From Blepharisma japonicum (taxonomy: Eukaryota > Ciliophora > Heterotrichea > Heterotrichida > Blepharismidae), in assembly GCA_949751835.1 (NCBI GenBank), contig CATKHK010000017.1, positions 310,001 to 374,000 of the forward strand: a stretch of DNA of 64,000 bases, given 5' to 3'. Each line of letters opens with the position of its first letter. The stretch's first letter is position 1. The notes under the pieces were generated by a model that was not told the DNA's origin, made no database searches, and worked only from the letters and a program-made list of their open reading frames with translations. The position numbers and the translations under genes were made by a program. Below, in pieces: positions 36,211 to 50,168 of this stretch.

Positions 36211-37068
36211 ATGAGCCATGGTGAATATTATATAATAATCAAAAAATTTAATTTAAACATGTTGAAATGCTTTATGGATATAATTCACGGCCAAAAGAAA
36301 ATGGAATTTGATAAGAAGACTGTGATTTATGTTGGAGGAGCCTTTATTATTTCAGCTGCGATCTATTATCTGTATTGCAAGACATTGAAAAAAGCAAAGC
36401 CTGATAACAACCAGAATCAGCCAAAATTGGATTGTAAATTCAGAGAATTAGAAATTTTAATTTCTGAAGGCACCAATGAAGGTTGGAATGAAATCAAGAA
36501 AACTGACACTTTCAACGTTTACAAAAAAGACACAGGTGACTCTCCAATTGCTATAATTAAAGCCTTCATTATCATCAAAGATACCTCTATTGAAGATGTC
36601 CATTTTGCTATATGGGATGGTGATTTCCGAAGGTCATGGGATTCTGTAGCACAAGATTTTCAAGTAATTGATAAAACTGATCATCAGAACGACGTCATTT
36701 ATTTTTATGCAAAAAGCCCAGTACCTTGGCTTGTATCGAATAGAGAATTTGTCCAGCACAGAATGTATAGAAGAGATGGAGATAAAATTATGATTGTTTA
36801 CTGGTCAGCTGATAGACCTGACAGAGCTGTTCCTGAAAACTGGGTGAGGGCAAATACTATTATTTCAGGGTATATTATTGAAAAGGGCGAAAATCCAGGA
36901 GAAGTCAAGGTGAATTTTATTACACAAAATGATGTAAAAGGGAGCATACCTCCACAACTTATAAATACTTATGCTCCAATTAAGGCACTTAATTGGGTTA
37001 AAGAGCTAGGAAAAGCGTGCAAATTACTACAAAATAATCGCCATAAACATATCATTAATGAAAGCTAA
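36211..37068 (+). CDS. START-domain lipid-transfer protein with membrane anchor
   Basis: 285 aa. N-terminal membrane helix (TVIYVGGAFIISAAIYYLYC, about residues 36-55), then a START domain (about 75-275): WDGDFRRSWDSVAQDFQVID, YFYAKSPVPWLVSNREFV, IVYWSADRPDRAVPENWVR and the C-terminal PPQLINTYAPIKALNWVKEL. START domains bind sterols or phospholipids in a hydrophobic tunnel. The start may be ATG 36211 or an inner ATG at 36301 (MEFDKK), which would put the helix at the very N-terminus. The last 340 bases are copied into the downstream duplication. Confidence 0.9.
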   Translation: MSHGEYYIIIKKFNLNMLKCFMDIIHGQKKMEFDKKTVIYVGGAFIISAAIYYLYCKTLKKAKPDNNQNQPKLDCKFRELEILISEGTNEGWNEIKKTDTFNVYKKDTGDSPIAIIKAFIIIKDTSIEDVHFAIWDGDFRRSWDSVAQDFQVIDKTDHQNDVIYFYAKSPVPWLVSNREFVQHRMYRRDGDKIMIVYWSADRPDRAVPENWVRANTIISGYIIEKGENPGEVKVNFITQNDVKGSIPPQLINTYAPIKALNWVKELGKACKLLQNNRHKHIINES

Positions 37069-37164
37069 ATTGATATAAATAGCTCATCTATATTTGTCTA
37101 TTTTTCAGTAATGTTTTATTAAAATGATAAATATAAATTATTTCTTAAATGCCTCAATAGTAGC

Positions 37165-39780
37165 CTAATCGTTGATATAGCCCATCATATCTTTAAACGA
37201 GTTATCATAATTTCCTCTTTTACCTGATGATCACGCCAACATTTTTTGCAAAAGTTTTGAGAGCCATTTAGGCTCAATATATTGCAATTTATTAAATGAT
37301 TCTTTTTTCCAATCAGCAACAGACTCAAGCTCCACCATTTGTAAAAATACTAGGCCAAGAGAAAAAATATCGGATTTTTCGATCTCATTAGTGCTAGATA
37401 AATTCCCCAAGATGATTTCTGGAGAAGAATATCCTTCCTCATTTTGGATGAAATCATCAAAATTTTCAGGAAATAAGCATTCGCTATATAGCCTAGTTTT
37501 TGGAATAAAAAATCCTGTGATTTTTATATCTGAATGCATGCTAAACGCTATATTATGAGGCTTAATATTGCAATGACAGTTAAAATTGCTTTTTAAAGCA
37601 ATCAATCCTTCTAAAATTAATTTTGCATAATCTCTTAACTCAATTTCTGAATATCTTATATTATATTCTCTTCTTTTAGTAATGTCTGATATTAAGCTTT
37701 TACTGCATCATTCCGTTATATTAGAAAATTCGCAACAGCTTTTATATGAATACATTGACCCATAATATTCTATGAATGTGGAATGCTTTCCATTTAATTC
37801 TTTAAGTAACTTAGCTTCTTCAATATATGGAAGTAAATTTCTGAAATCTTTGCTTCGATAAGTTCTTATAAGTACCGTTTTTTCGTTGTAAATACCTTTT
37901 AAAAATTCAACTGTAACATCAGTTGACAAACACTTTGAATAGTGAGGTATTGGGCAAAATTCAATTAAACTTGAGCTAATTATTTCAAGATCTTTAAGAT
38001 AATTAGAAACGTTTATATTGGAATTTAGCTCGATTTCATATTCCAAAATTTGCTTGGATAAGCTACCTTCATTTTTATTTACTTCGCAAGTCATAAAAGT
38101 ATCTAAACATTCTTTAAAACTTGCTCTTTCAGCGCTATTTACAGCAAGCATCTTTCTTAGTAAATCTGCTACATTTTTTGGTTTAAAAGTTGATAAATAA
38201 TTATCAATTTTATACCAAAATGGAGGTGTGTTTAGCTCAGAAATTGGGAGTAAAGAATACATCTGCAAAAATATTAAGCCTAATGAGTATACATCACATT
38301 TTTCTAAAAAGTCTAAGCTTTTTATCTCAAAACGATCTTCTTCATTAAGTGCAAAGATCTCTGGAGCTGTATAATTGTCTTGTCATAAGCTGTATATATT
38401 ATTTGCGTATAAAATAGGCCTATTCATTTCAAGTCTTTCTGAGAAACTAAATTCAGCAATTTTAATCATTCGATTTTCAGTTATTAATATATTATGAGGA
38501 TTAACATTTGTGTGCGTAATTCCTAATGATTTCAAAAAAGAAAATGCACTTAATAAGTCAAAAACTATTTTTTGGTATTCTTTATATGCATATTTTTCAT
38601 TTTTGTTGCTATGATTGATAATATCATCTATAAGTGTGCTATCAAATGCTTCAGTAACAATAGAGAAGTCTTTTGAGTTTTGAGAATTTGAAGACCCTTT
38701 ATACCAACCTTTGTATTCCAAAAAGCATTGGTTTTTTCCTGAAAGATATCTGAAGAGATTGCACTCTTTTAAAAACAAACTTGATGGACTGCTGAACTTT
38801 TGATGATAGTGTTTAATACATATTGGTATGGACTTGTCTAGCATTCCTTTGTAAGCTGAAATACTTGACACTTCTTCATTGATTTCAGAGAATCTGCATA
38901 TCAACTCCGTTATTTCAATTTTTTCAATTTGTAACTCCGTACTTTCGAAATCATCCATAAGAGAGGCTCAAAAATTGTTGGATTGGTAACATATTTTGAC
39001 ATTTTCCCTTTTAAAGAAACTCATCTTCATACAATTAATTTTAGCTCTCGTGTCCTGATCTAGCTTAATTGCTTCATCAATAAGTTCAATAAGCCCAATA
39101 AGCTTTTCAGCGATTTTTTCAAAGTTTTCATAAGTATCTACGTCAGAAAGATCATCTTCAAGCTTTGCCTTCTCAGATTCAATTCATTTTAAAGTAGAAT
39201 CCACAATATCTTTTGTTAACCACTCAAAGCAATTCTCTATTTCTGGCTTAAATGCTAATATAAAGTTTAAGTTTTCTATTAGCTTATCTTTATCTTCTGT
39301 TAGTGTGATCAGTTTTAATCTATTGTCAATTTGAATTTTAAGATCATTTCAGCAGGAATTTCCAGTAAGTTCCTTAATTACATTTTGTAATTTGTATCAG
39401 TTTAGTGCATCTTCTAAATTTATGCAGAATCTCATATCTTCCTTAATCCTATCTAATAATCTCAATAGTAAATATTGATCTGCAGATTCAGAAACAATCT
39501 TTAGATGCGCAGCAGCTTTCATCGCTGATAGACACAATTTATAAGTCAGGGGTCTGCATTTAAGGATTTTAGAGATTTTACAAGATTTGCACAAAATACT
39601 CATCACAATTTGGAGTTTTTGATTGTCTGGCAAATTAATTTTCAAATATCTTCTTCTTTCTTTTAGATAATCTAAATCAAGTGCTTCCAATTTAATTCTA
39701 AAGTTTTTTATAGAGTCGCTTTTTGGATACGCGTTTCGAGTATATTCCCCTATCTCATGTCCCAAAAATACTTGATCCAT
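37165..39780 (-). CDS. Double pseudokinase with helical N-terminus (gene A)
   Basis: 871 aa, one open frame when TGA is Trp. Residues 30-130 are a Cys-rich helical domain (LCKSCKISKILKCRP, LSAMKAAAHLKIVSES); 150-270 are helical/coiled. Pseudokinase 1 (about 290-565) keeps the beta-3 Lys (ICIK, K323), the helix-C Glu (LKEC, E339), NPHNIL (N430), APE and DVYSLGL, but HRD is HTN (423-425) and DFG is EFS (443-445). Pseudokinase 2 (about 615-865) has VLIRTY with Arg639 for Lys, HCNIKPHN (Asp to Asn) and TGFF instead of DFG. Neither domain should phosphorylate. Layout resembles MLKL-type effectors. It ends at a TAG where the twin gene continues nine codons. Confidence 0.88.
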
Positions 39781-40123
39781 GATTTTATTTTTGATTCTAT
39801 AAATTTTTGATTAATTAATTCTGCAGGAAATCTTATGTGATAAATCTGGTTTAAATAAATAATTTTTTAAACCTGATATTTTAATAATTAGATTTAATTT
39901 ATTGAATAAAAAGTAAGAAGAATCATGATATATCTTATGCGAAAGAGAAGTCAAGATGGAATATGAACCAAAAATCGTAGAAAGCTAATAGAGTGATGAC
40001 GCCCAGCCTCTATAGAGAAAATTCAACGTGTTCAAATGGCCTTATGGCCATCTCCATTTTCACCCTTAGAAAAGCATCAAAATAAACTACAATGATGCAT
40101 TTTAGATAAAACTATCTTAATGC
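39781..40123. other. Spacer between pseudokinase genes A and B, unit 1
   Basis: AT-rich. A GC-richer patch near 39990-40050 (GATGACGCCCAGCCTC, then CAAATGGCC/TTATGGCC) is conserved in the second unit near 46750-46800; its role is unknown. Confidence 0.5.
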
Positions 40124-41781
40124 TTAGCTTGTAAAAATCTCCAAACTTTCTTTAAAACTAGGTCTTTCATTACTATTTTCAGCAAGCATTTTTCTCAATA
40201 AATTTGCTACGTTTTCTGGCTTAAAAGCTGATACATAGCAGTCTATTTTACTCCAAAATAGAGGTGTGTTTAACTCAGCGATTGGTAGTAAAGAATACAT
40301 CTGTAAAAAAACTAACCCTAGTGAATATACATTGCATTTATTAATATCTATACTTGTTTTATTGGCAACGCCTTTATGAATTCTAATTAGTTCTGGAGCC
40401 ATATAGTCATCCTTTCATAAACTATCTGCATTATTTGAATATAGAGTAGGATTATCTATTGAAAAGCTATCTGAAAAATTGAATTCTGCTATTTTTAGTG
40501 TCCGATTTTCAGCTATCAGTATATTATGGGGTTTTATATTGTTGTGTATTATTTCTCTAGATTCTAAAAAAGAAAATGCATCCAAGAGGCAAATAACGAT
40601 TCATTGATATTCTTGATACGTATATTTTTGATTTTGGCTACTACGATTAACAATTTCGTCCATTAATGTGCAAGCAAATCCTTCTGTTACAATAGCAAAG
40701 GCAGGAACTTTTTTTGAATCGTTAAAATCTAAAAGTTCGTGAAATCAGCCTTCGTATTTCAAAAAATGTTGGCTTGTTTCTGACAAATTTCTTATGAGAT
40801 TTAGTTCTTTTAGAAATACATTTGGAGGCTCATTGAACTTTTGATGATAGATTTTGATGCAGATTGGTTTGGATTCGTCTAGTATGCCTCTATAAGTTGA
40901 GATGATTGATTGTTCTTCATTAAACTCTGAAGTGAAAGCTATTAATTCCATTTTCGTAATTCTATCAAATGCTATCCTCTTTTCTTCGAAATCTTCAGGA
41001 AATATATTTCCACTTTTCTCCTTATCATTTTCATCTATAATTTCTCATTCTAAAACATGATTTGTATCATCTATTTCGTCTAATTTTTTTTCTTTTTCCT
41101 CTCTTATTGCTGCTATAAGCTCTTCAAGTTTTTTGGAATTATTTCTAAACTCTATAAGAGAGTCTATGTCACAACATTTAGTTCTTTGTGTCTCAGTTTC
41201 TATTCATTTTAATGAGGCACTTACAGTACAACTGATTATTCATTTTAATTCAACCTTTTCTTCTTGATTAAATTGTCTTATAAACTCAAGATTTTCCTTA
41301 AGTTTATCGAATCATTTTCTATCGCAATTAAATATAATGTTTCATCTATTTGCTCCCTAAAAGACTGTTTCAAGGTATTTTCTATGCTAGATTCAATTCT
41401 TTTGATTAGCCTTCAGCAATTCACAGCATTATCTAGCCTGTCACAATTTTTTATATTTTCTTGTAAGCATTCTTTCAATTCATCTAAAACCTCTTGAACT
41501 GCATATTCAGAATAAAAAAGCAGATGGGTTGCAGCTTTAAGAGCTGAAACGCACTGTTTTAAATTTAAACTCCTTTTGTTTAATATCACACAAATTTTGC
41601 AAGCTTTATATAGTTGTTTACCAAGTTCTTGATTGTCTTTAAATAATGTTTTAATTTTATCCCGTCTGCGTTTTAAAGTCTTTATTATAGAACCTTTTGA
41701 AACCTTTAATAGACGCTGTAAACTCTTATCATCATCCAAAGCTTTTTTAATTAATTTTCGTCACACTTGTTCTTCCTTCAT
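40124..41781 (-). pseudogene. Single-pseudokinase gene B, frameshifted copy
   Basis: Homologue of the open gene at 47018-48676. Both halves are well kept: MKEEQVW.. helical N-terminus (SALKAATHLLFYSEYAVQEV) at 41413-41781 in one frame, and the coiled linker plus pseudokinase at 40124-41300 in another. Compared with the twin, one base is missing near 41311-41325 in a short AT stretch, so the N-terminal frame reaches a TAA at 41278. HRD is HNN and DFG is EFN, as in the twin. It may be a true pseudogene, a sequencing error, or differ between chromosome copies. Confidence 0.75.
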
Positions 41782-42180
41782 TTTTATAACTCTATAATTT
41801 AATTAAATTAAGCTATAAAATTATGCTAATTATTATTTAAAATTTACCCGTCTGATAGCTCAAAGCAGTAATTATGAGTTATGGATAGAATATTATTTTG
41901 CTCCTTATATAATTATATACCCGGGAAGTTGTCCCATTAAATTTTTCAATTCTCGAGTTTATATGTCCTGTTTTTTTAATAATGGGCTCCATCTTTAAAT
42001 TTGCATAAGTCAAAATTCTATTGAAATTTTGGCCTGATATGCTGACTGGAGTGAATATGCATTGAGATCTATTGTATTGTATACTCAGGAAGTTACCCCT
42101 TGTGCTATCAAATTTTTATGTATTTACTTTACTTTATTCTCATTCACTTTTTATTGGTAATTTATTAAATCTTTTTATAT
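41782..42180. other. AT-rich spacer upstream of gene B, unit 1
   Basis: Holds a 26-base motif beginning AGAATATTATTTTGCT (41887) that recurs at 48786 and 50202. No gene seen. Confidence 0.5.
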
Positions 42181-42189
42181 TAATCTTCT

Positions 42190-43245
42190 AAATCTATCAA
42201 AGTGATTGCATTTAAATATATTTCTTCAAGATATTTCTAATTATACTACAAACATCTAAATTTTTTGGTACAAAATCAATTTCTATGTTTAACTTTCTCA
42301 GAATATAGCTATATTCTAGCATATGAAATTTCTCAACAAATGCAAATTTAGGGGTATATAGCGAATTAAAAATAAGTTTATTTAAAGTTTCTTATATAAA
42401 TTGCTATTTTCATTGGTTTTATTAGCTCCAGCATTATCTAGAAATATTACAGTATTTTTTCTAAAATTTTGATTTCTATTTTCTATTAGACGAACTAAAT
42501 CCGTAATAAAGCTGTTGAATGTGTGTTTATTGTTTCCTCCTTCAATTGCTCTTCAAACAATAATACCATTACTACTTAATACTGTCAAAATAATAGTGTA
42601 ATTTCTATAATTTGGCTTTTAAATGAAATGCATTTTTGACCTTTTTTACTTAATCCATGGCTTCTGCTGTCATTATCAATGTGAAATTCATCAATATTTA
42701 TAATTTCAATATTTCTCTCCAGAATTTTGAGGTATCGTAGCTACATTTTGGCGTTTGATCATATTTATCTTTGAAACTCGATAGATTGGATGCTCCCATC
42801 ATTTTTGAGCTCCCTCATGCATTTGTAAACTTACTTAAAAGTAATTCTTTCATCTATTAGTTGTTATTTATTTTTTCAACTCTCTTAGGAATTGAAATAG
42901 TTGGATCACTATTTAAGCACGCTTCGGTCAAAGCAAGTCAGGCTGTACTATTACTTTAATTGCTTATCACTTCTTCCATCTTCAATATTACTACCTTCCT
43001 TATTTTTTTTAAGAATTGCATGGGGACGCTCTAAACCTTTTCCAATATCGACATAAGTGATGAGTTGATGAGAATCGTAAAGCTTTATTTTATAATTTCC
43101 CTCGCGTTTTTAATTTTTTTAAATATTTTCTTGTTTGATATTCATATTCTGATCATTTGCATTAGTTCTTTCTTTACTATGGCTTCTGCTGGGCATGATC
43201 TCCATAATCAAAGTCAATAAGGAACTGATTTTTTTTATTTGATGG
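42190..43245 (-). mobile_element. Decayed Tc1/mariner-type (IS630 superfamily) transposon, copy 1
   Basis: Minus-strand transposase remains in several frames. The catalytic core is readable: IINIDEFHIDND with the first Asp near 42691, RAIEGGNNKHTFNSF, then VIFLDNAGANKTNEN with the second Asp at 42436-42438, and YTPKFAFVEKF with the Glu at 42332-42334. The second Asp to Glu spacing is about 34 residues, the DD34E pattern of Tc1/mariner. The core is interrupted by stops and frameshifts, so this copy is dead. Terminal inverted repeats were not found. Its Trp (GIIVWRAIE) is TGA-coded, so it was adapted to this code. Confidence 0.8.
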
Positions 43246-43472
43246 TGAAAGTCATAGCATTTTTCATTTCCTATAGAGCTTGGCTCCTAAATTTGAGAGA
43301 AGGTCTTAGAAGGAAGGTTATCATGCTCAGTTGTATTGATATTGCAGGTCTTAACGAAAAGATGTTTATCAAAGTAAAAAGGAGATAATTCTGTTTGATG
43401 CACTGTGATCATTGTGTGTATTTCAAAGTCAGTCATTTCCATTTTTTCTTTTTATTTGATTCGTCAGATAAA

Positions 43473-43815
43473 TTGGCTTGTATCGAATAGAGAATTTGTC
43501 CAGCACAGAATGTATAGAAGAGATGGAGATAAAATTATGATTGTTTACTGGTCAGCTGATAGACCTGACAGAGCTGTTCCTGAAAACTGAGTGAGGGCAA
43601 ATACTATTATTTCAGGGTATATTATTGAAAAGGGCGAAAATCCAGGAGAAGTCAAGGTTAATTTTATTACACAAAATGATGTAAAAGGGAGCATACCTCC
43701 ACAACTTATAAATACTTATGCTCCAATTAAGGCACTTAATTGGGTTAAAGAACTAGGAAAAGCGTGCAAATTACTACAAAATAATCGCCATAAGCATATC
43801 ATTAATGAAAGCTAA
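43473..43815 (+). pseudogene. Truncated copy of the START gene
   Basis: Matches the last 113 residues of the gene at 36211-37068 (WLVSNREFVQHRMYRRDGD to KHIINES) almost base for base; the lipid-binding N-half and the membrane anchor are absent. It was carried by the duplication. An ATG at 43405 in the adjoining unique sequence is in frame by chance (MIIVCISKSVISI), so a short chimeric protein is possible but would lack most of the fold. One codon differs as TGA for TGG (both Trp). Confidence 0.85.
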
Positions 43816-43884
43816 ATTGATATAAATAGCTCATCTATATTACTTTACTTTTCAGTAATGTTTTATTAAAATGATAAATGTAAA

Positions 43885-46539
43885 TTATTTCTTAAATGCC
43901 TCAATAGTAGCATAATCGTTGATATACCTCATCATATCTTTAAAGGAGTTATCATAATTTCCTCTTTTACCTGATGATCACGCCAACATTTTTTGCAAAA
44001 GATTTGAGAGCCATTCAGGCTCAATATGTTGCAATTTTTTAAATGATTCTTTTTTCCAATCAGCAACAGGCTGAAGCTCCACCATTTGTAAAAATACTAG
44101 ACCAAGAGAAAAAATATCGGATTTTTCGATCTCATTAGTGTTGGATAAACTTCCCGAGATGCTTTCTGGAGAAGAATATCCTTCCTCATTTTGGATGAAA
44201 TAATCAAAATTTTCAGGAAATAAGCATTCGCTATATATCCCAGCTTTTGGAATAAAAAAACCTGTAATTTTTATATTTGAATCCATGCTAAACGCTATAT
44301 TATGAGGCTTAATATTGTGATGAGGGTTAAAATTGCTTTTTAAAGCAACCAATCCTTCTAAAACCATTATTGCATAATTTCTTAAATCAATTTCTGGATA
44401 TTTTATATTATTTGCTCTTCTTTTAGTAATATCTGATATTAAGCTTTGACTGCATCATTCTGTTATATTAGAAAATTCGCAGCAGCTTTTATATGAATAC
44501 ATTGACCCATAATATTCTATGAATGTGGAATGCTTTCCATTTAATTTTTTAAGTAATTTAGCTTCTTTAACATATGGAAGTAAATTTCTGAAATCTTTAC
44601 TTCGATAAGTTCTTATAAGTACCGTTTTTTCGTTGTGAATACCTTTTAAAAATTCAACTGTAACTTCCTTTGACAAATGCTTTGAATAGTGAGGTTCTGG
44701 GAAAAATTCAATTAAACTTGAGCTAATTACTTCAAGATCTTTAAGATAATTAGAAACGTCTATATTGGGATTTAGCTCGATTTCATATTCCAAAATTTGC
44801 TTGGATAAGCTACCTTCATTTTTATTTACTTGGCAAGTCATAAAAATATCTAAACATTCTTTAAAACTTGCTCTTTCAGCGCTTTTTACAGCGAGCATCT
44901 TTCTTAGTAAAATTGCTACATTTATTGGTTTAAAAGTTGATAAATAGTCATCAATCTCATCCCAAAATGGAGATGTGTTTAGCTCAGAAATTGGGAGTAA
45001 AGAATACATCTGCAAAAATATTAAGCCTAATGAATATACATCACATTTTTCTAAAAAATCTAAGCTTTTTATCTGAGAACGATCTTCCTCATTAAGTTCA
45101 AAGATCTCTGGAGCTGTATAGTTGTCTTTTCATAAGTTGTATGCATCATTTGCATATGAAATAGGTCTATTCATTTCAAGTCTTTCTGAGAAACTAAATT
45201 CAGCAATTTTAATCATTCGATTTTCAGTTATCAATATATTATGAGGTTTAACATTTGTATGTGTAATTTCTAATGATTTCAAAAAAGAAAATGCATTTAA
45301 TAAGCAAAAAACTATTTTTTGGTATTCTTGATATGTATATTTTTGATTACTGCTGCTATGATTGATAATATCATCTATAAGTCAGCTATCAAATGCTTCA
45401 GTAACAATAGCAAAATCAGAGAAGTCTTTTGAGTCTTGAGAATTTGAAGACTCTTTATACCAACCTTTGTATTCCAAAAAGCATTGGTTTTTTCCTGAAA
45501 GATATCTGAAGAGCTTGCATTCTTTTAAAAATAAATTTGATGGACCGCTGAACTTTTGATGATAGTGTTTAATACAAATTGGTATGGAATTGTCTAGCCA
45601 TCCTTTGTAAGCTGAAATAATTGACCCTTCTTCATTGTATTCAGAGAATCTGCATATCAACTCCGTTTTTTTAATTCTTTCAATTGGTAACTCCGTACTT
45701 TCGAAATCATCCATAAGAGAGGTTCAAAAATTGTTGGACTGGTAACATATTTTGACATTTTCCCTTTTAAAGAGACTCATCTTCATACAATTAATTTTAT
45801 CTCTAGTGTCCTGGTCTAGCTTAAGTGCTTCATCATTAAGATCAATAAGCCCAATAAGTTTTTCAGCAGTTTTTTCAAAGTTTTCATAAGCATCTACGTA
45901 AGAAAGATCAGCGTCAAGCTTTGCCTTCTCAGATTCAATTCATTTTAAAGTAGAATCCACAATATCTTTTGTTAACCACTCAAAGCAATTCTCTATTTCT
46001 GGCTTAAATGATAATACGAAGTTTAAGTTTTCTATTAACTTATCTTTGTCTTCTGTTAGTGTGATCATTTTTAATTTATTGTCAATTTGAATTTTAAGAT
46101 CATTTCAGCAGGAATTTCCAGTAAGTTTCTTAATTACATTTTGTAATTTGTATCAGTTTAGTGCATCTTCTAAATTTATGCAGAATCTTATATCTTCCTT
46201 AATCTTATCTAATAACCTCAATAGCAAATCTTGATCTGCAGATTCAGAAACAATCTTTAGATGCGCAGTAGCTTTCAGCGCTGATAGACACAATTTAAAA
46301 GTCAGTGGTCTGCATTTAAGGATTTTAGATATTTTACAAGATTTGCACAAAATACTCATCAAAATTTGGAGATTTTGATTGTCTGGGAAATGATTTTTGA
46401 TATATTCTCTTTTTTTTATTAGATAATCTAGATCAAGTATTTCCAATTTCTCTATAAGGCAACTTATTTTAGGGTATCTTTCTAGAAACGTGTTTCGAGC
46501 ATATTTCCCTATCTCATATCACAAAAATACTTGATTCAT
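43885..46539 (-). CDS. Double pseudokinase, unit 2 (gene A')
   Basis: 884-aa twin of gene A, open throughout when TGA is Trp. The N-terminus is MNQVFLWYEIGKYARN, more diverged than the rest. Pseudokinase 1 has HTNVKPHNIL (HRD Asp to Asn; the following Lys is kept here, unlike in A) and IAEFSFSE for DFG. Pseudokinase 2 has HHNIKPHNIA and ITGFF. The C-terminus reads through the position of A's TAG as YINDYATIEAFKK before TAA. The open frame over 2.6 kb despite many substitutions relative to A argues that both copies are or were under selection. Confidence 0.88.
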
Positions 46540-47017
46540 TTTATTTTTGATTCTATAAATTTTTGATTAATTAATTCTGTAGCAAATCTTATGTGATAAA
46601 TCTGGTTTAAATAAATAATTTTTTAAACCTGATATTTTAATAATTAGATTTAATTTGTTGTATAAAAAGTAAGAAGGGTCATAATATATCTTATGCGAAA
46701 GAGAAGCCAAGATAGAATATGATCCAAAAATCGTAGAAAGCTAATACAGCGATGACGCCCAGCCTCTATAGAGAAATGCAACGTGTTCAAATGGCATCAT
46801 GGCCATTTCACCCTTAGAAAAGCATAAAAATAATCTAAAATGATGTATTTAAGATAAAAATATCTTAATTCTTATATAATCTGGAAGTTAGGATGTATGA
46901 TAATATAGAAAATGGCTTTCATTAAGTCAAAATGCATCAAAGAAAATGCAAAGTAACTATCATAAATGATAAACTTTAATAGATATCATATCTAATCCTT
47001 AATTGATTGATTTTCTC
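46540..47017. other. Spacer between A' and B', unit 2
   Basis: Same as the unit-1 spacer plus about 140 additional bases (about 46872-47011) that unit 1 lacks. No gene seen. Confidence 0.5.
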
Positions 47018-48676
47018 TTAGCTTGTAAAGATCTCCAAACATTCTTTAAAACTAGGTCTTTCATTGGTATTTTCAACAAGCATTTTTCTCAATAAATTTG
47101 CTACGTTTTCTGGCTTAAAAGTTGATACATAGCAGTCTATTTCACTCCAAAATAAAGGTGTGTTTAACTCAGCGATTGGTAATAAAGAATACATCTGTAA
47201 AAAAACTAACCCTAGTGAATATACATCGCATTTATTAATATCCATATTTGTTTTATTAACAATGCTTTTATGAATTCCAATTATTTCTGGAGCCCTATAG
47301 TCATCCTTTCATAAACTATCTGCATTATTTGAATATAGAGTAGGATTATCTATTAAAAAGTTATCTGAAAAATTGAATTCTGCTATTTTTAGTGTCCGAT
47401 TTTCAGTTATCAGTAGATTATGAGGTTTTATATTGTTGTGTTTTATTTCTCTAGATTCTAAAAAAGAAAATGCATCCAAGAGGCAAATAACGATTCATTG
47501 ATATTCTTGATACGTATATTTTTGATTTTGGCGACTACGATTAACAATTTCGTCCATTAATGTACAAGCAAATCCTTCTGTTACAATAGCAAAGGCAGGA
47601 ACATTTTTTGAATTGTTAAAATTTAAAAGTTCTTGAAATCAGCCTTCGTATTTCAAAAAATGTTGGCTTGTTTCTGACAAATTTCTTATGAGATTTAGTT
47701 CTTTTAGAAATTCATTTGGAGGCTCATTGTATTTTTGATGATAGATTTTGATGCAGATTGGTTTGGATCCGTCTAGCATGCCTCTATAAGTTGAGATGAT
47801 TGATTGTTCTTCATTAAACTCTGAAGCGAAAGCTATTAATTCTATTTTCGTAATTCTATCAAATGCAATCCTCTTTTCTTCGAAATCTCTAGGAAATATG
47901 CTTCCACATTTCTCCTTATCATTTTCATCTATAATTTCTTGTTTTAAAACATGAATTGTATCATCTATTTTATCTAATTTTTCTTCTTTTTCCTCTCTTA
48001 TTGCTGCTATAAGTTCTTCAAGTTTTCTGGAATTATTTTCAAACTCTATAAGAGAGTCTACGTCACAACATTTAGTTCTTTTTTTCTCAGTTTTAATTCA
48101 TTTTAATGAGGCACTTACAGTACAATTGATTATTCATTTTAATTCAACCTTTTCTTCTTGATTAAATTGTCTAATAAACTCAAAATTTTCCTTAAGCTTA
48201 TCGATATCATTTTTTGCCGCAATTCAATATAATGTTTCATCTATTTGTTCCCTAAAAGACTGTTCCAAACTATTTTCTATGCTAGATTCAATTCTTTTGA
48301 TTAGCCTTCAGCAATTCACAGCATCATCTAGCCTGTCACAATATTTTATATTTTCTTGAAAGAAATCTTTCAATTCCTCTAAAACTTCTTGAACTGCATA
48401 TTCAGAATAGAAAAGTAGATGGGTTGCAGCTTTAAGAGCTGAAACGCACTGTTTTAAATCTAAACTCCTTTTGTTTAATATCACACAAATTTTGAGGGCT
48501 TTATATAGTTGTTTACCAAGTTCTTGATTGTCATTAAATAATATTTTACTTTTATCCCATTTGCGTTTTAAAGTCTTTATTTTATAACCTTTTGAAACCT
48601 TTAACAGACGCTGTAAGCTCTTATCATCATCCAAAGTTTTTTTAATGAATTTTCGTCAAACTTGTTCTTCCTTCAT
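47018..48676 (-). CDS. Single-pseudokinase protein, open copy (gene B')
   Basis: 552 aa. Start MKEEQVWRKFIKKTLDDDKS; residues 20-120 form the helical domain homologous to A's (LGKQLYKALKICVILNKRS; SALKAATHLLFYSEYAVQEV), 130-260 a charged coiled linker (ELIAAIREEKEEKLDKIDD), 270-545 a pseudokinase. Lys of ICIKIY and helix-C Glu (FLKELNL) are kept; HRD is HNN, DFG is EFN, APE and DVYSLGLVFLQMYSL are intact. It stops after SFKECLEIFTS, where gene A goes on into a second pseudokinase. Several Trp are TGA-coded. Confidence 0.87.
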
Positions 48677-49080
48677 TTTTATAACTCTATAATTTAGTTA
48701 AATTAAGCTATAAAATTATGCTAATTATTAATATTTTTAAAATTTACTGTCTGATAACTCAAAGCAGTAATTATGAGTTATGGGTAGAATATTATTTTGC
48801 TCCTTATATAATTGTATACTCGGGAAGTAGTCCCATTAAATTTTCAATTCTTCGAGTTCATATGTCCTGTTTTTTTAATAATGGACTCCATCTTTAAACT
48901 CAAATAAGTTAAATCCTATTGAAGTTTTGGCCTGATATGCTGACTGGAGCGAAAATGCATTGAGATCTATTGTATTGTATGCTCAGGAAATTATCCCTTT
49001 GTGTTATCAAATTTTTATGTGTTTACTTTACTTTATTCTCATTCAATTTTTATTGGAAATTTATTAAACATTTTTAAATT
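48677..49080. other. AT-rich spacer upstream of B'
   Basis: Counterpart of 41782-42180; contains the AGAATATTATTTTGCT motif at 48786. No gene seen. Confidence 0.5.
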
Positions 49081-49084
49081 AATC

Positions 49085-50168
49085 TTAAATCTATCAAATT
49101 GATTGCATTCATAATATATTTCCTCAAGATATTTCTAATTATACTACAAACATCTAAATATTTTTGTACAAAATCAATTGCTACGTTTAACTTTCTCAGA
49201 ATATAGCTTTATTCTAGGATATGAAATTTTATTTTCTATCATTGATATAACTCTCTCAACAAATGCAAATTGAAGGGTATATCGCGAATTAAAAATATGT
49301 TTATTGAAATTTTCTTATATAAATTGCTATTATCATTGGTTTTATAAGCTCCAGCATTATCTAGAAATATTACAGCATTTTCTCTAAAATTTTGATTTCT
49401 ATTTCCTATTAGACAGACTAAATCCGTAAAAAAGCTGTTGACTGTGTGTTTATTGTTTCCTCCTTCAATTGCTCTTCAAGCAATAATGCCATTACTACTT
49501 GATGCTGCTAAAATAATATTGTAATTTCTATAATTTGGCTTTTTGAATTAAATGCATTTTTGACTTTTTTTACTTAATCCATGGCTTTTGCTGTCATTAT
49601 CAATGTGAAATTCATCAATATTTATAATTTCAATATTTCTCTCCAGAATTTTGAGTTAACGTAGCTACATTTTGGTGTTTGATCATATTTATCTTTGAAA
49701 CTCGATTGATTGGATGCTCCCATCATTTTTGAGCTCCCTCATACATTTGTAAACTTACTTAAAAGTAATTCTTTCATCTATTAGTTGTTATTTAGTTTTT
49801 CAACTCTCTCAGGAATTGAAATAGTTGGATCACTATTTAAGCATGCTTTGGTCAAAGCAAGTCAGGCTGTACTACTTACTTTAACTGCTTATCACTTCTT
49901 CCATTTTCAATATTATACCTTCCTTATGTTTTGTAAGAATTGCATGGGGAAGCTCCAAACCTTTTTCCAATATCGACATATGTGATGAGTTGATGAGAAT
50001 CGTGAAGCTTTATTTTATAATTTCCCTCGCGTTTTTAATTTTTTTAAATATTTTCTTGCTTGATATTCATATTCTGATCATTTGTATTAGTTCTTTCTTT
50101 ACTATGGCTTCTGCTGGCATGATCTCCATAATCAAAGTCAATAAGGAACTGATTATTTTATTTGATGG
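49085..50168 (-). mobile_element. Decayed Tc1/mariner-type transposon, copy 2
   Basis: Twin of the relic at 42190-43245. The core reads IINIDEFHID, GLSKKSQKC, then AWRAIEGGNNKHT, AVIFLDNAGAYKTN (second Asp at 49359-49361) and FAFVERV (Glu at 49255-49257), again about 34 residues apart. It retains about 30 bases near 49230 lost from copy 1. Stops and frame changes interrupt it. Plus-strand ORFs at 49785-50202 inside it are chance shadows. Confidence 0.8.

What the first reader, a model, noticed from the sequence alone, without database searches (positions are those of the whole stretch)
37165..48676. Array of helical-bundle pseudokinases with an MLKL-like layout
Seen: four genes (A, B, A', B') share an N-terminal Cys-rich helical domain of about 100 aa, a coiled linker and kinase folds in which HRD is HTN/HNN/HCN/HHN and DFG is EFS/EFN/GFF. 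The APE and DVYSLGL structural motifs are kept. Established: metazoan, plant and fungal necroptosis-type effectors (MLKL, HeLo-domain proteins) couple a membrane-attacking four-helix bundle and brace to a pseudokinase or kinase-like sensor. Inference: this ciliate family may be a comparable membrane-acting or self-recognition system. Tandem copies and scattered fragments fit the quick turnover seen in immune or mating-type loci.
Basis: partly seen in the sequence, partly recalled or inferred. Interest (0 to 1): 0.9.

Follow-up and report, generated by a model that had tools for sequence, protein, structure and literature searches.

The report
Duplicated pseudokinase array in Blepharisma
Four neighbouring genes in a Blepharisma-like ciliate encode kinase-like proteins that lack key catalytic residues and carry a helical front domain; they are fast-changing offshoots of a larger heterotrich kinase family, and nothing found here shows that they attack membranes like the cell-death protein MLKL.

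Summary
Read with TGA=Trp, minus-strand genes A (37165-39780), A' (43885-46539) and B' (47018-48676) encode a helical N-terminal domain plus two (A, A') or one (B') kinase folds with HTN/EFS, HCN or HHN/GFF, and HNN/EFN in place of HRD/DFG. B (40124-41781) is frameshifted. The 'array' is one segment duplicated at 93% identity, carrying half a START-domain gene along. The genome looks like a Blepharisma close to, but not, B. stoltei, in which one A and one B orthologue were found.

These genes are a derived pseudokinase branch of a heterotrich kinase family (dozens of matches here; also Stentor). Of 22 recognised family loops outside the three pseudokinase arrays, 19 keep both Asp residues. The first pseudokinase domains form one clade shared with B. 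stoltei, the second domains another.

The MLKL reading is not supported: the N-terminal domain is predicted as 12 helices over ~255 residues, not a ~124-residue four-helix bundle plus two-helix brace; no HeLo/MLKL sequence match appeared; and the kinase fold matches MLKL no better than CDKs or RAF. The N-terminal fold alone could not be tested. Best mechanism (inferred): non-catalytic partners, decoys or regulators of active paralogues.

The parts
37165..39780 (-). Gene A: helical N-domain + two pseudokinase domains, 871 aa from the ATG
   Evidence: HTN/EFS and HCN/GFF
39016..39780 (-). A, helical N-terminal domain (about residues 1-255)
   Evidence: boundary carried over from the A' and B' models by alignment; A itself was not modelled
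40124..41781 (-). Gene B: N-domain + one pseudokinase, broken by a frameshift near 41300 (two frames, 41278-41781 and 40124-41353)
43885..46539 (-). Gene A': 884 aa, helical N-domain + pseudokinase 1 + pseudokinase 2
45772..46539 (-). A', helical N-terminal domain, 12 predicted helices (residues 1-256)
44806..45708 (-). A', pseudokinase 1 (about residues 278-578; HTN/EFS, VAIK Lys and alphaC Glu kept)
43900..44739 (-). A', pseudokinase 2 (about residues 601-880; Arg in place of the VAIK Lys, HHN/GFF)
47018..48676 (-). Gene B': 552 aa, helical N-domain + one pseudokinase (HNN/EFN)
47924..48676 (-). B', helical N-terminal domain (residues 1-251, 12 helices; helices 4-11 confident)
36726..43245 (.). 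Duplicated segment, unit 1
43473..50168 (.). Duplicated segment, unit 2
43378..43815 (+). Truncated copy of the neighbouring START-domain gene (36211-37068), carried along by the duplication (homologous from 43473)

Best explanation
The genes are a Blepharisma pseudokinase branch of a heterotrich kinase family with an N-terminal all-helical domain of about 255 residues joined to a kinase domain. A forerunner with two kinase folds lost the DFG Asp in every copy seen and the catalytic HxD Asp in most (the C109 first domain still has it, so the DFG loss probably came first), and the gene multiplied in tandem (arrays on C2, C17 and C109). The products most likely act without phosphotransfer: they would use the shared helical domain and the kinase fold to bind, and so regulate, sequester or stand in for, active paralogues or their partners. 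Shown: family membership, loss of motifs, common origin of the first domains and of the second domains, segmental duplication. Inferred: that they are expressed, that they lack activity, that they bind active paralogues, and what pathway they serve.
For: Family: B' finds 79 matches in the own genome (45 places when merged). Protein searches with C29, B' and a seven-sequence profile reach B. stoltei and Stentor coeruleus. N-domain: a profile of 25 members not labelled Blepharisma (5 Stentor, 20 unnamed) finds 10 of 19 N-domains of this genome and 0 of 19 shuffled ones. The pseudokinase branch is among the 9 missed and is linked by profile-profile comparison: 97.4% (98.5% in a run with another option), or 93.4% without the Blepharisma kinases, against at most 0.8% in 50 column-shuffled controls and 0.6% reversed. 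Motifs: of 36 catalytic loops recognised by pattern in 60 loci (DFx of six rows re-read by eye) 19 are D/D. The C2, C17 and C109 arrays have 14: 7 N/G, 4 N/E, 3 D/G. The other 22 have 19 D/D and one each D/E, D/N, G/D. Tree of 68 kinase domains: first pseudokinase domains one clade, 100/100; second domains one clade, 100/99. In 40 aligned members including B' and its kin the VAIK Lys and catalytic-loop Asn are invariant and the alphaC Glu nearly so. A'/B' dN/dS is 0.33, which speaks for constraint.
Against: No expression, interaction or activity data. A, A', B', C2 and C109 are all missed by the plain N-domain profile; with ten own-genome members added, C109, A' and A pass HMMER's inclusion line but B' and C2 do not. 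The A/A' ratio of 0.80 and the broken B could also mean decay. Loss of these Asp residues does not prove loss of all activity. The two clades do not join in the tree (2 changes; 1% of 200 bootstrap trees with one), so two separate losses are as likely as one. Nothing found here shows an interaction with an active paralogue.
Confidence: 0.5

Rival explanations
1. MLKL-like membrane executioners: the helical domain permeabilises membranes when the pseudokinase senses a signal.
For: Helices and then a pseudokinase; the first three predicted helices of B' are short, amphipathic and cationic (net +9); MLKL pseudokinase domains are among the best fold matches of the kinase parts, and first in the A' list.
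Against: 12 helices over ~255 residues in two models against residues 1-124 plus a two-helix brace in MLKL (PMC8433767, passages). No HeLo/MLKL match in Pfam or PDB by sequence. MLKL ties with CDKs and RAF within 1 Z unit. Helices 1-3 have pLDDT near 60. No 19-residue window above 1.4 on the Kyte-Doolittle scale in A, A' or B'. The domain is shared with kinases that keep both Asp residues.
Confidence: 0.07
2. Immune or self-recognition sensors or decoys: tandem, changing pseudokinases that serve as bait for, or adaptors to, something foreign, as the clustered ZED1/ZRK pseudokinases of plants do.
For: Tandem arrays with fragments. Nonsynonymous differences between A and A' are denser in the first 100 residues than in the rest (32 of 231 against 114 of 1875 sites, odds ratio 2.5, p = 8e-5). 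N-domain against rest, identity to B. stoltei: 62/71.5, 63/75 and 58.5/67% in three branch members, 95/94, 86/90 and 77/70% in three others (six of ten pairs examined). ZED1 lies in a cluster with seven related pseudokinases (PMC6634424, passages).
Against: Nonsynonymous against synonymous change in that stretch is not significant (p = 0.38), and indels blur the alignment there. One of the three other paralogues (86/90) leans the same way. No population data, partner or stimulus. A D/D array such as C102 exists too, so turnover is not special to this branch.
Confidence: 0.2
3. Decaying duplicates with little or no function.
For: B is frameshifted, A lacks the last 9 residues of A', dN/dS 0.80 for A/A' and 0.51 and 0.76 for the two pieces of B; the C2 array holds short open frames.
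Against: A' and B' keep 884 and 552 open codons; counterparts of 883 and 552 aa are on record for B. stoltei; A'/B' dN/dS is 0.33.
Confidence: 0.18

Closest known systems
Heterotrich N-helical kinases without a family name (e.g. Stentor coeruleus SteCoe_10560 = P0011, SteCoe_16470 = P0056; B. stoltei P0006)
   Same: N-terminal domain and kinase domain in the same order and of like length
   Different: These three keep HxD and DFG, DFN or DFS and have one kinase domain; P0010 and P0052 have two
MLKL of animals and plant MLKLs such as Pm13
   Same: Helical N-terminal part before a kinase-like domain; animal MLKL is a pseudokinase
   Different: MLKL has a four-helix bundle of ~124 residues and a two-helix brace; here ~12 helices over ~255 residues, no sequence match found, and two kinase folds in A and A'
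ZED1/ZRK pseudokinases of Arabidopsis
   Same: Clustered pseudokinases (PMC6634424, passages)
   Different: Known partner ZAR1, none known here; lack of a helical domain of this kind is recalled
Plant tandem kinase-pseudokinases (WTK1/Yr15)
   Same: Two kinase folds in one chain (A, A')
   Different: Both folds lack the Asp residues here, with a helical domain in front (abstract of PMC6170490)
Toxoplasma ROP5 pseudokinase
   Same: Polymorphic pseudokinase acting with an active paralogue, ROP18 (start of abstract in the listing); B' just reaches the PF14531 cut-off (25.1 against 25 bits)
   Different: Secreted from rhoptries, with another N-terminal part (recalled)

Membership tests
Protein kinase superfamily (PF00069) | Match above Pfam's cut-off | tested here: met
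   A 134.3, A' 127.6, B' 80.5, B piece 80.6 bits against 31.7
Conventional active protein kinase | Catalytic HxD Asp and DFG Asp | tested here: not met
   Asn and Glu (first domains of A and A', B, B'), Asn and Gly (second domains)
Heterotrich N-helical kinase family (defined here) | Homologous N-terminal helical domain before the kinase | tested here: met
   Profile-profile 97.4%, or 93.4% without Blepharisma kinases; controls at most 0.8%. B' matches C29 at 28% over residues 34-545. Plain profile missed the branch
MLKL | N-terminal four-helix bundle (~124 aa) plus two-helix brace | tested here: not met
   12 helices over ~255 aa in both models, 8 of them confident in B'; judged by number and length of helices only
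MLKL | Three-dimensional match of the N-domain to the MLKL/HeLo bundle | tested here: inconclusive
   Kinase chains filled the rows shown (50 of 1935; 50 each); residues before ~259 barely tested
MLKL | HeLo or MLKL_NTD sequence family | tested here: inconclusive
   No such Pfam model among 40 full-length members (E up to 0.01) or 11 N-domains (E up to 10), no such PDB chain; distant kin could be missed
MLKL | Pseudokinase domain with degenerate HRD and DFG | tested here: met
   not specific to MLKL
MLKL | Membrane permeabilisation; activation by an upstream kinase | not testable with these tools
   needs experiment
Plant tandem kinase-pseudokinases | One kinase and one pseudokinase domain in tandem | tested here: not met
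   Both domains of A and A' lack the Asp residues

The most novel reading that the evidence does not exclude
A ciliate recognition or cell-death system built on pseudokinases with an undescribed helical effector domain, in which change in the first helices sets specificity and the domain acts on membranes or on partners when the pseudokinase senses a non-self or stress signal.
Probability: 0.08. Interest if true: 0.85.

Novelty: new variant of a known kind. Interest (0 to 1): 0.42.

Why it matters
It describes a heterotrich kinase family with an N-terminal domain that matched no Pfam model consistently (single weak matches only) and no solved structure convincingly, and a case in which kinases of that family gave rise to a tandem, two-headed pseudokinase branch found in two Blepharisma species. 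It offers paired active-looking and dead paralogues for testing what pseudokinases do in ciliates. If the recognition reading held, it would bear on how ciliates tell self from non-self.

Tried and rejected
Cys-rich or zinc-like domain: rejected, no Cys is invariant among 11 N-domains (two are in the four). Internal repeats in the N-domain (alpha-solenoid): only weak self-matches at shifts near 48 and 90 residues, best 2.1% probability, not claimed. Positive selection on the first 100 residues: not significant against synonymous change. Known domain for the N-terminus: the best sequence matches were one PDB chain at E 0.0064 (8vei_A, CHD_r1, residues 179-237), one at E 3.5, a helical DGKD_4H match in 1 of 40 members at E 6.4e-4, and 16 Pfam families in 1 of 11 N-domains each, best E 0.0028; none repeated, none used. 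Fold search of B' and second looks for B' and A': rows shown were kinases; no N-domain match appeared, which says nothing for or against. The START gene as part of the system: rejected, its copy looks like a passenger of the duplication. NCBIfam: kinase-type models in all 40 members, best by number antiphage MAD6 and PknB, all from the kinase domain where the range was shown. Papers: the B. stoltei genome paper has 'kinase' 0 times in the main text (find). No paper holds both 'Blepharisma' and 'pseudokinase'; Blepharisma with kinase, genome and expansion gave 8 papers (listing only, none opened). Statements that this is undescribed rest and on the open library alone.
Full report
Setting. The window lies on contig C17 of a 45.2-Mb genome in which many kinase frames carry in-frame TGA. 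Read with TGA=Trp the window genes open fully. The paralogue on C29 is 94% identical to a Blepharisma stoltei protein, while A' and B' are at 69% to theirs, and a protein of the MMETSP transcriptomes (P0009) is contained letter for letter in the paralogue on C23. So this is probably a Blepharisma close to, but not, B. stoltei; that the transcriptome species is B. japonicum is recalled, from no call. The B. stoltei genome paper reports UGA as Trp and 66% AT (PMC9942806, passages).

Anatomy. A and A' each have a helical N-domain and two kinase folds; B' has one; B is the frameshifted sister of B'. The four are two copies of one segment: 36726-40126 matches 43473-46874 at 92.8%, and 40123-43245 matches 47017-50168 at 92.9%. 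The copy includes the 3' half of a START-domain gene and a decayed stretch with a weak DDE_3 transposase match (E 0.021, below cut-off). In B. stoltei one counterpart of A and one of B were found, both listed with the same longest-contig length, which suggests one contig. A and A' group together before joining the B. stoltei A (100/99 for first domains, 99/93 for second), so the duplication followed the split of the species.

Family. B' finds 79 matches in the genome (79 of 420 candidates scored), at 45 places when merged, 11 of them with several matches. The weak ones may be ordinary kinases. Protein searches find relatives in B. stoltei and Stentor coeruleus, plus many unnamed clusters (38, 7 and 86 proteins at E <= 0.001, the weaker ones kinases of other organisms). 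Each search scored only 8000 candidates, so absence elsewhere is not shown. The N-domain is shared by active-looking members: a profile of 25 members not labelled Blepharisma (5 Stentor, 20 unnamed) found 10 of 19 N-domains of this genome and 0 of 19 shuffled ones. The nine misses were A, A', B', C2, C109, two of C148 and two of C6. With the ten added, the profile put C109, A', A and the two C148 members above HMMER's inclusion line, but not B', C2 or the C6 pair. Profile against profile, eight pseudokinase N-domains match the 35 of the kinases at 97.4% probability (98.5% with another option), and the 25 without Blepharisma kinases at 93.4%. Fifty column-shuffled controls gave at most 0.8%, reversed ones at most 0.6%.

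Motifs. Of 36 catalytic loops found by pattern in 60 loci (I re-read the DFx of six rows) 19 are D/D. The 14 loops of the arrays on C2, C17 and C109 are 7 N/G, 4 N/E and 3 D/G; none is D/D, but three keep the catalytic Asp, two of them on C109. The other 22 are 19 D/D and one each D/E (C43), D/N (C102) and G/D (C6). The pattern missed at least C128 (HKN/GFS) and a second C23 copy (HQD/DFK), seen. In 40 aligned members, B' among them, the VAIK Lys is invariant and the alphaC Glu nearly so; the second domains of A and A' have Arg for that Lys.

Tree. With 68 kinase domains the first pseudokinase domains form one clade (100/100) and the second domains another (100/99); the second sits with C29, C43 and P0007 (93/95), the first less firmly (88/90). 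B' groups with the first domains of A while C109 and C2 have both, so B most likely lost its second domain. The whole pseudokinase set needs two changes on the tree, so one origin is not shown. C109 branches first among the first domains and still has the catalytic Asp, which suggests that the DFG Asp went first.

Rates. dN/dS is 0.80 for A/A', 0.51 and 0.76 for the two pieces of B/B', and 0.33 for A'/B'. Identity to B. stoltei counterparts in ten pairs: A' 69.0, A 67.8, B' 69.2, C2 64.3%; C29 94.4, C60 88.1; and 73.0, 77.7, 71.1, 73.5% for four others. The branch is the fastest of these, but by a small margin over the last four; that the pairs are orthologues is assumed. The first 100 residues of A/A' differ most, without significant excess over synonymous change.

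Comparison with MLKL. In human MLKL the bundle is residues 1-124, joined by a two-helix brace to the pseudokinase (PMC8433767, passages). Plant Pm13 is modelled with the bundle, a three-helix brace and a kinase domain that keeps its key residues (PMC10951266, passages). The present domain is longer, has more helices, and no match to HeLo, MLKL_NTD or RPW8 appeared in Pfam or PDB by sequence. The layout 'helices, then pseudokinase' is a coarse likeness.

Verdict. They are best filed as a pseudokinase branch of a heterotrich kinase family not described in the papers searched. A role as non-catalytic partner or decoy of active paralogues is the likeliest mechanism, by inference from kin; recognition is possible; membrane attack has no support beyond the layout and a cationic, poorly modelled start.

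Noticed in passing
window 42215-43245 and 49113-50168; ORF 49236-49547 (-): Decayed stretch in both duplicated units with a weak DDE_3 transposase match in the one ORF tested (E 0.021, below cut-off).
   Followed up: partly
window 43378-43815 (+): Truncated START-domain copy, 99% identical over a 300-nt block to the intact gene at 36211-37068, higher than the ~93% of the duplication as a whole; gene conversion or constraint.
   Followed up: no
G000:C102:107759-129438: Tandem array with 9 kinase matches in one orientation; of 7 recognised loops 6 are HQD/DFN and one (108053) HQD/NFN: a second, largely active-looking expansion.
   Followed up: partly
L049:571-2313 (C128): Family kinase domain with HKN/GFS behind a Cys/His-rich start that looks like a B-box (recalled look, no Pfam match): perhaps an independent pseudokinase with another N-terminus.
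   Followed up: partly
L067, L036 and L054 (C6): Proteins that by eye have two or three kinase folds in a row, the later ones degenerate.
   Followed up: no
G000:C109:14008-18552 (L046): Second C109 copy interrupted by stops next to an intact one: birth and death in that array as well.
   Followed up: no
family-wide: Where DFG is expected most active-looking members have DFN, DFS or DFD; DFG itself was seen in P0011-P0014, P0059, P0062 and the two C6 first domains, DLG in P0010.
   Followed up: no
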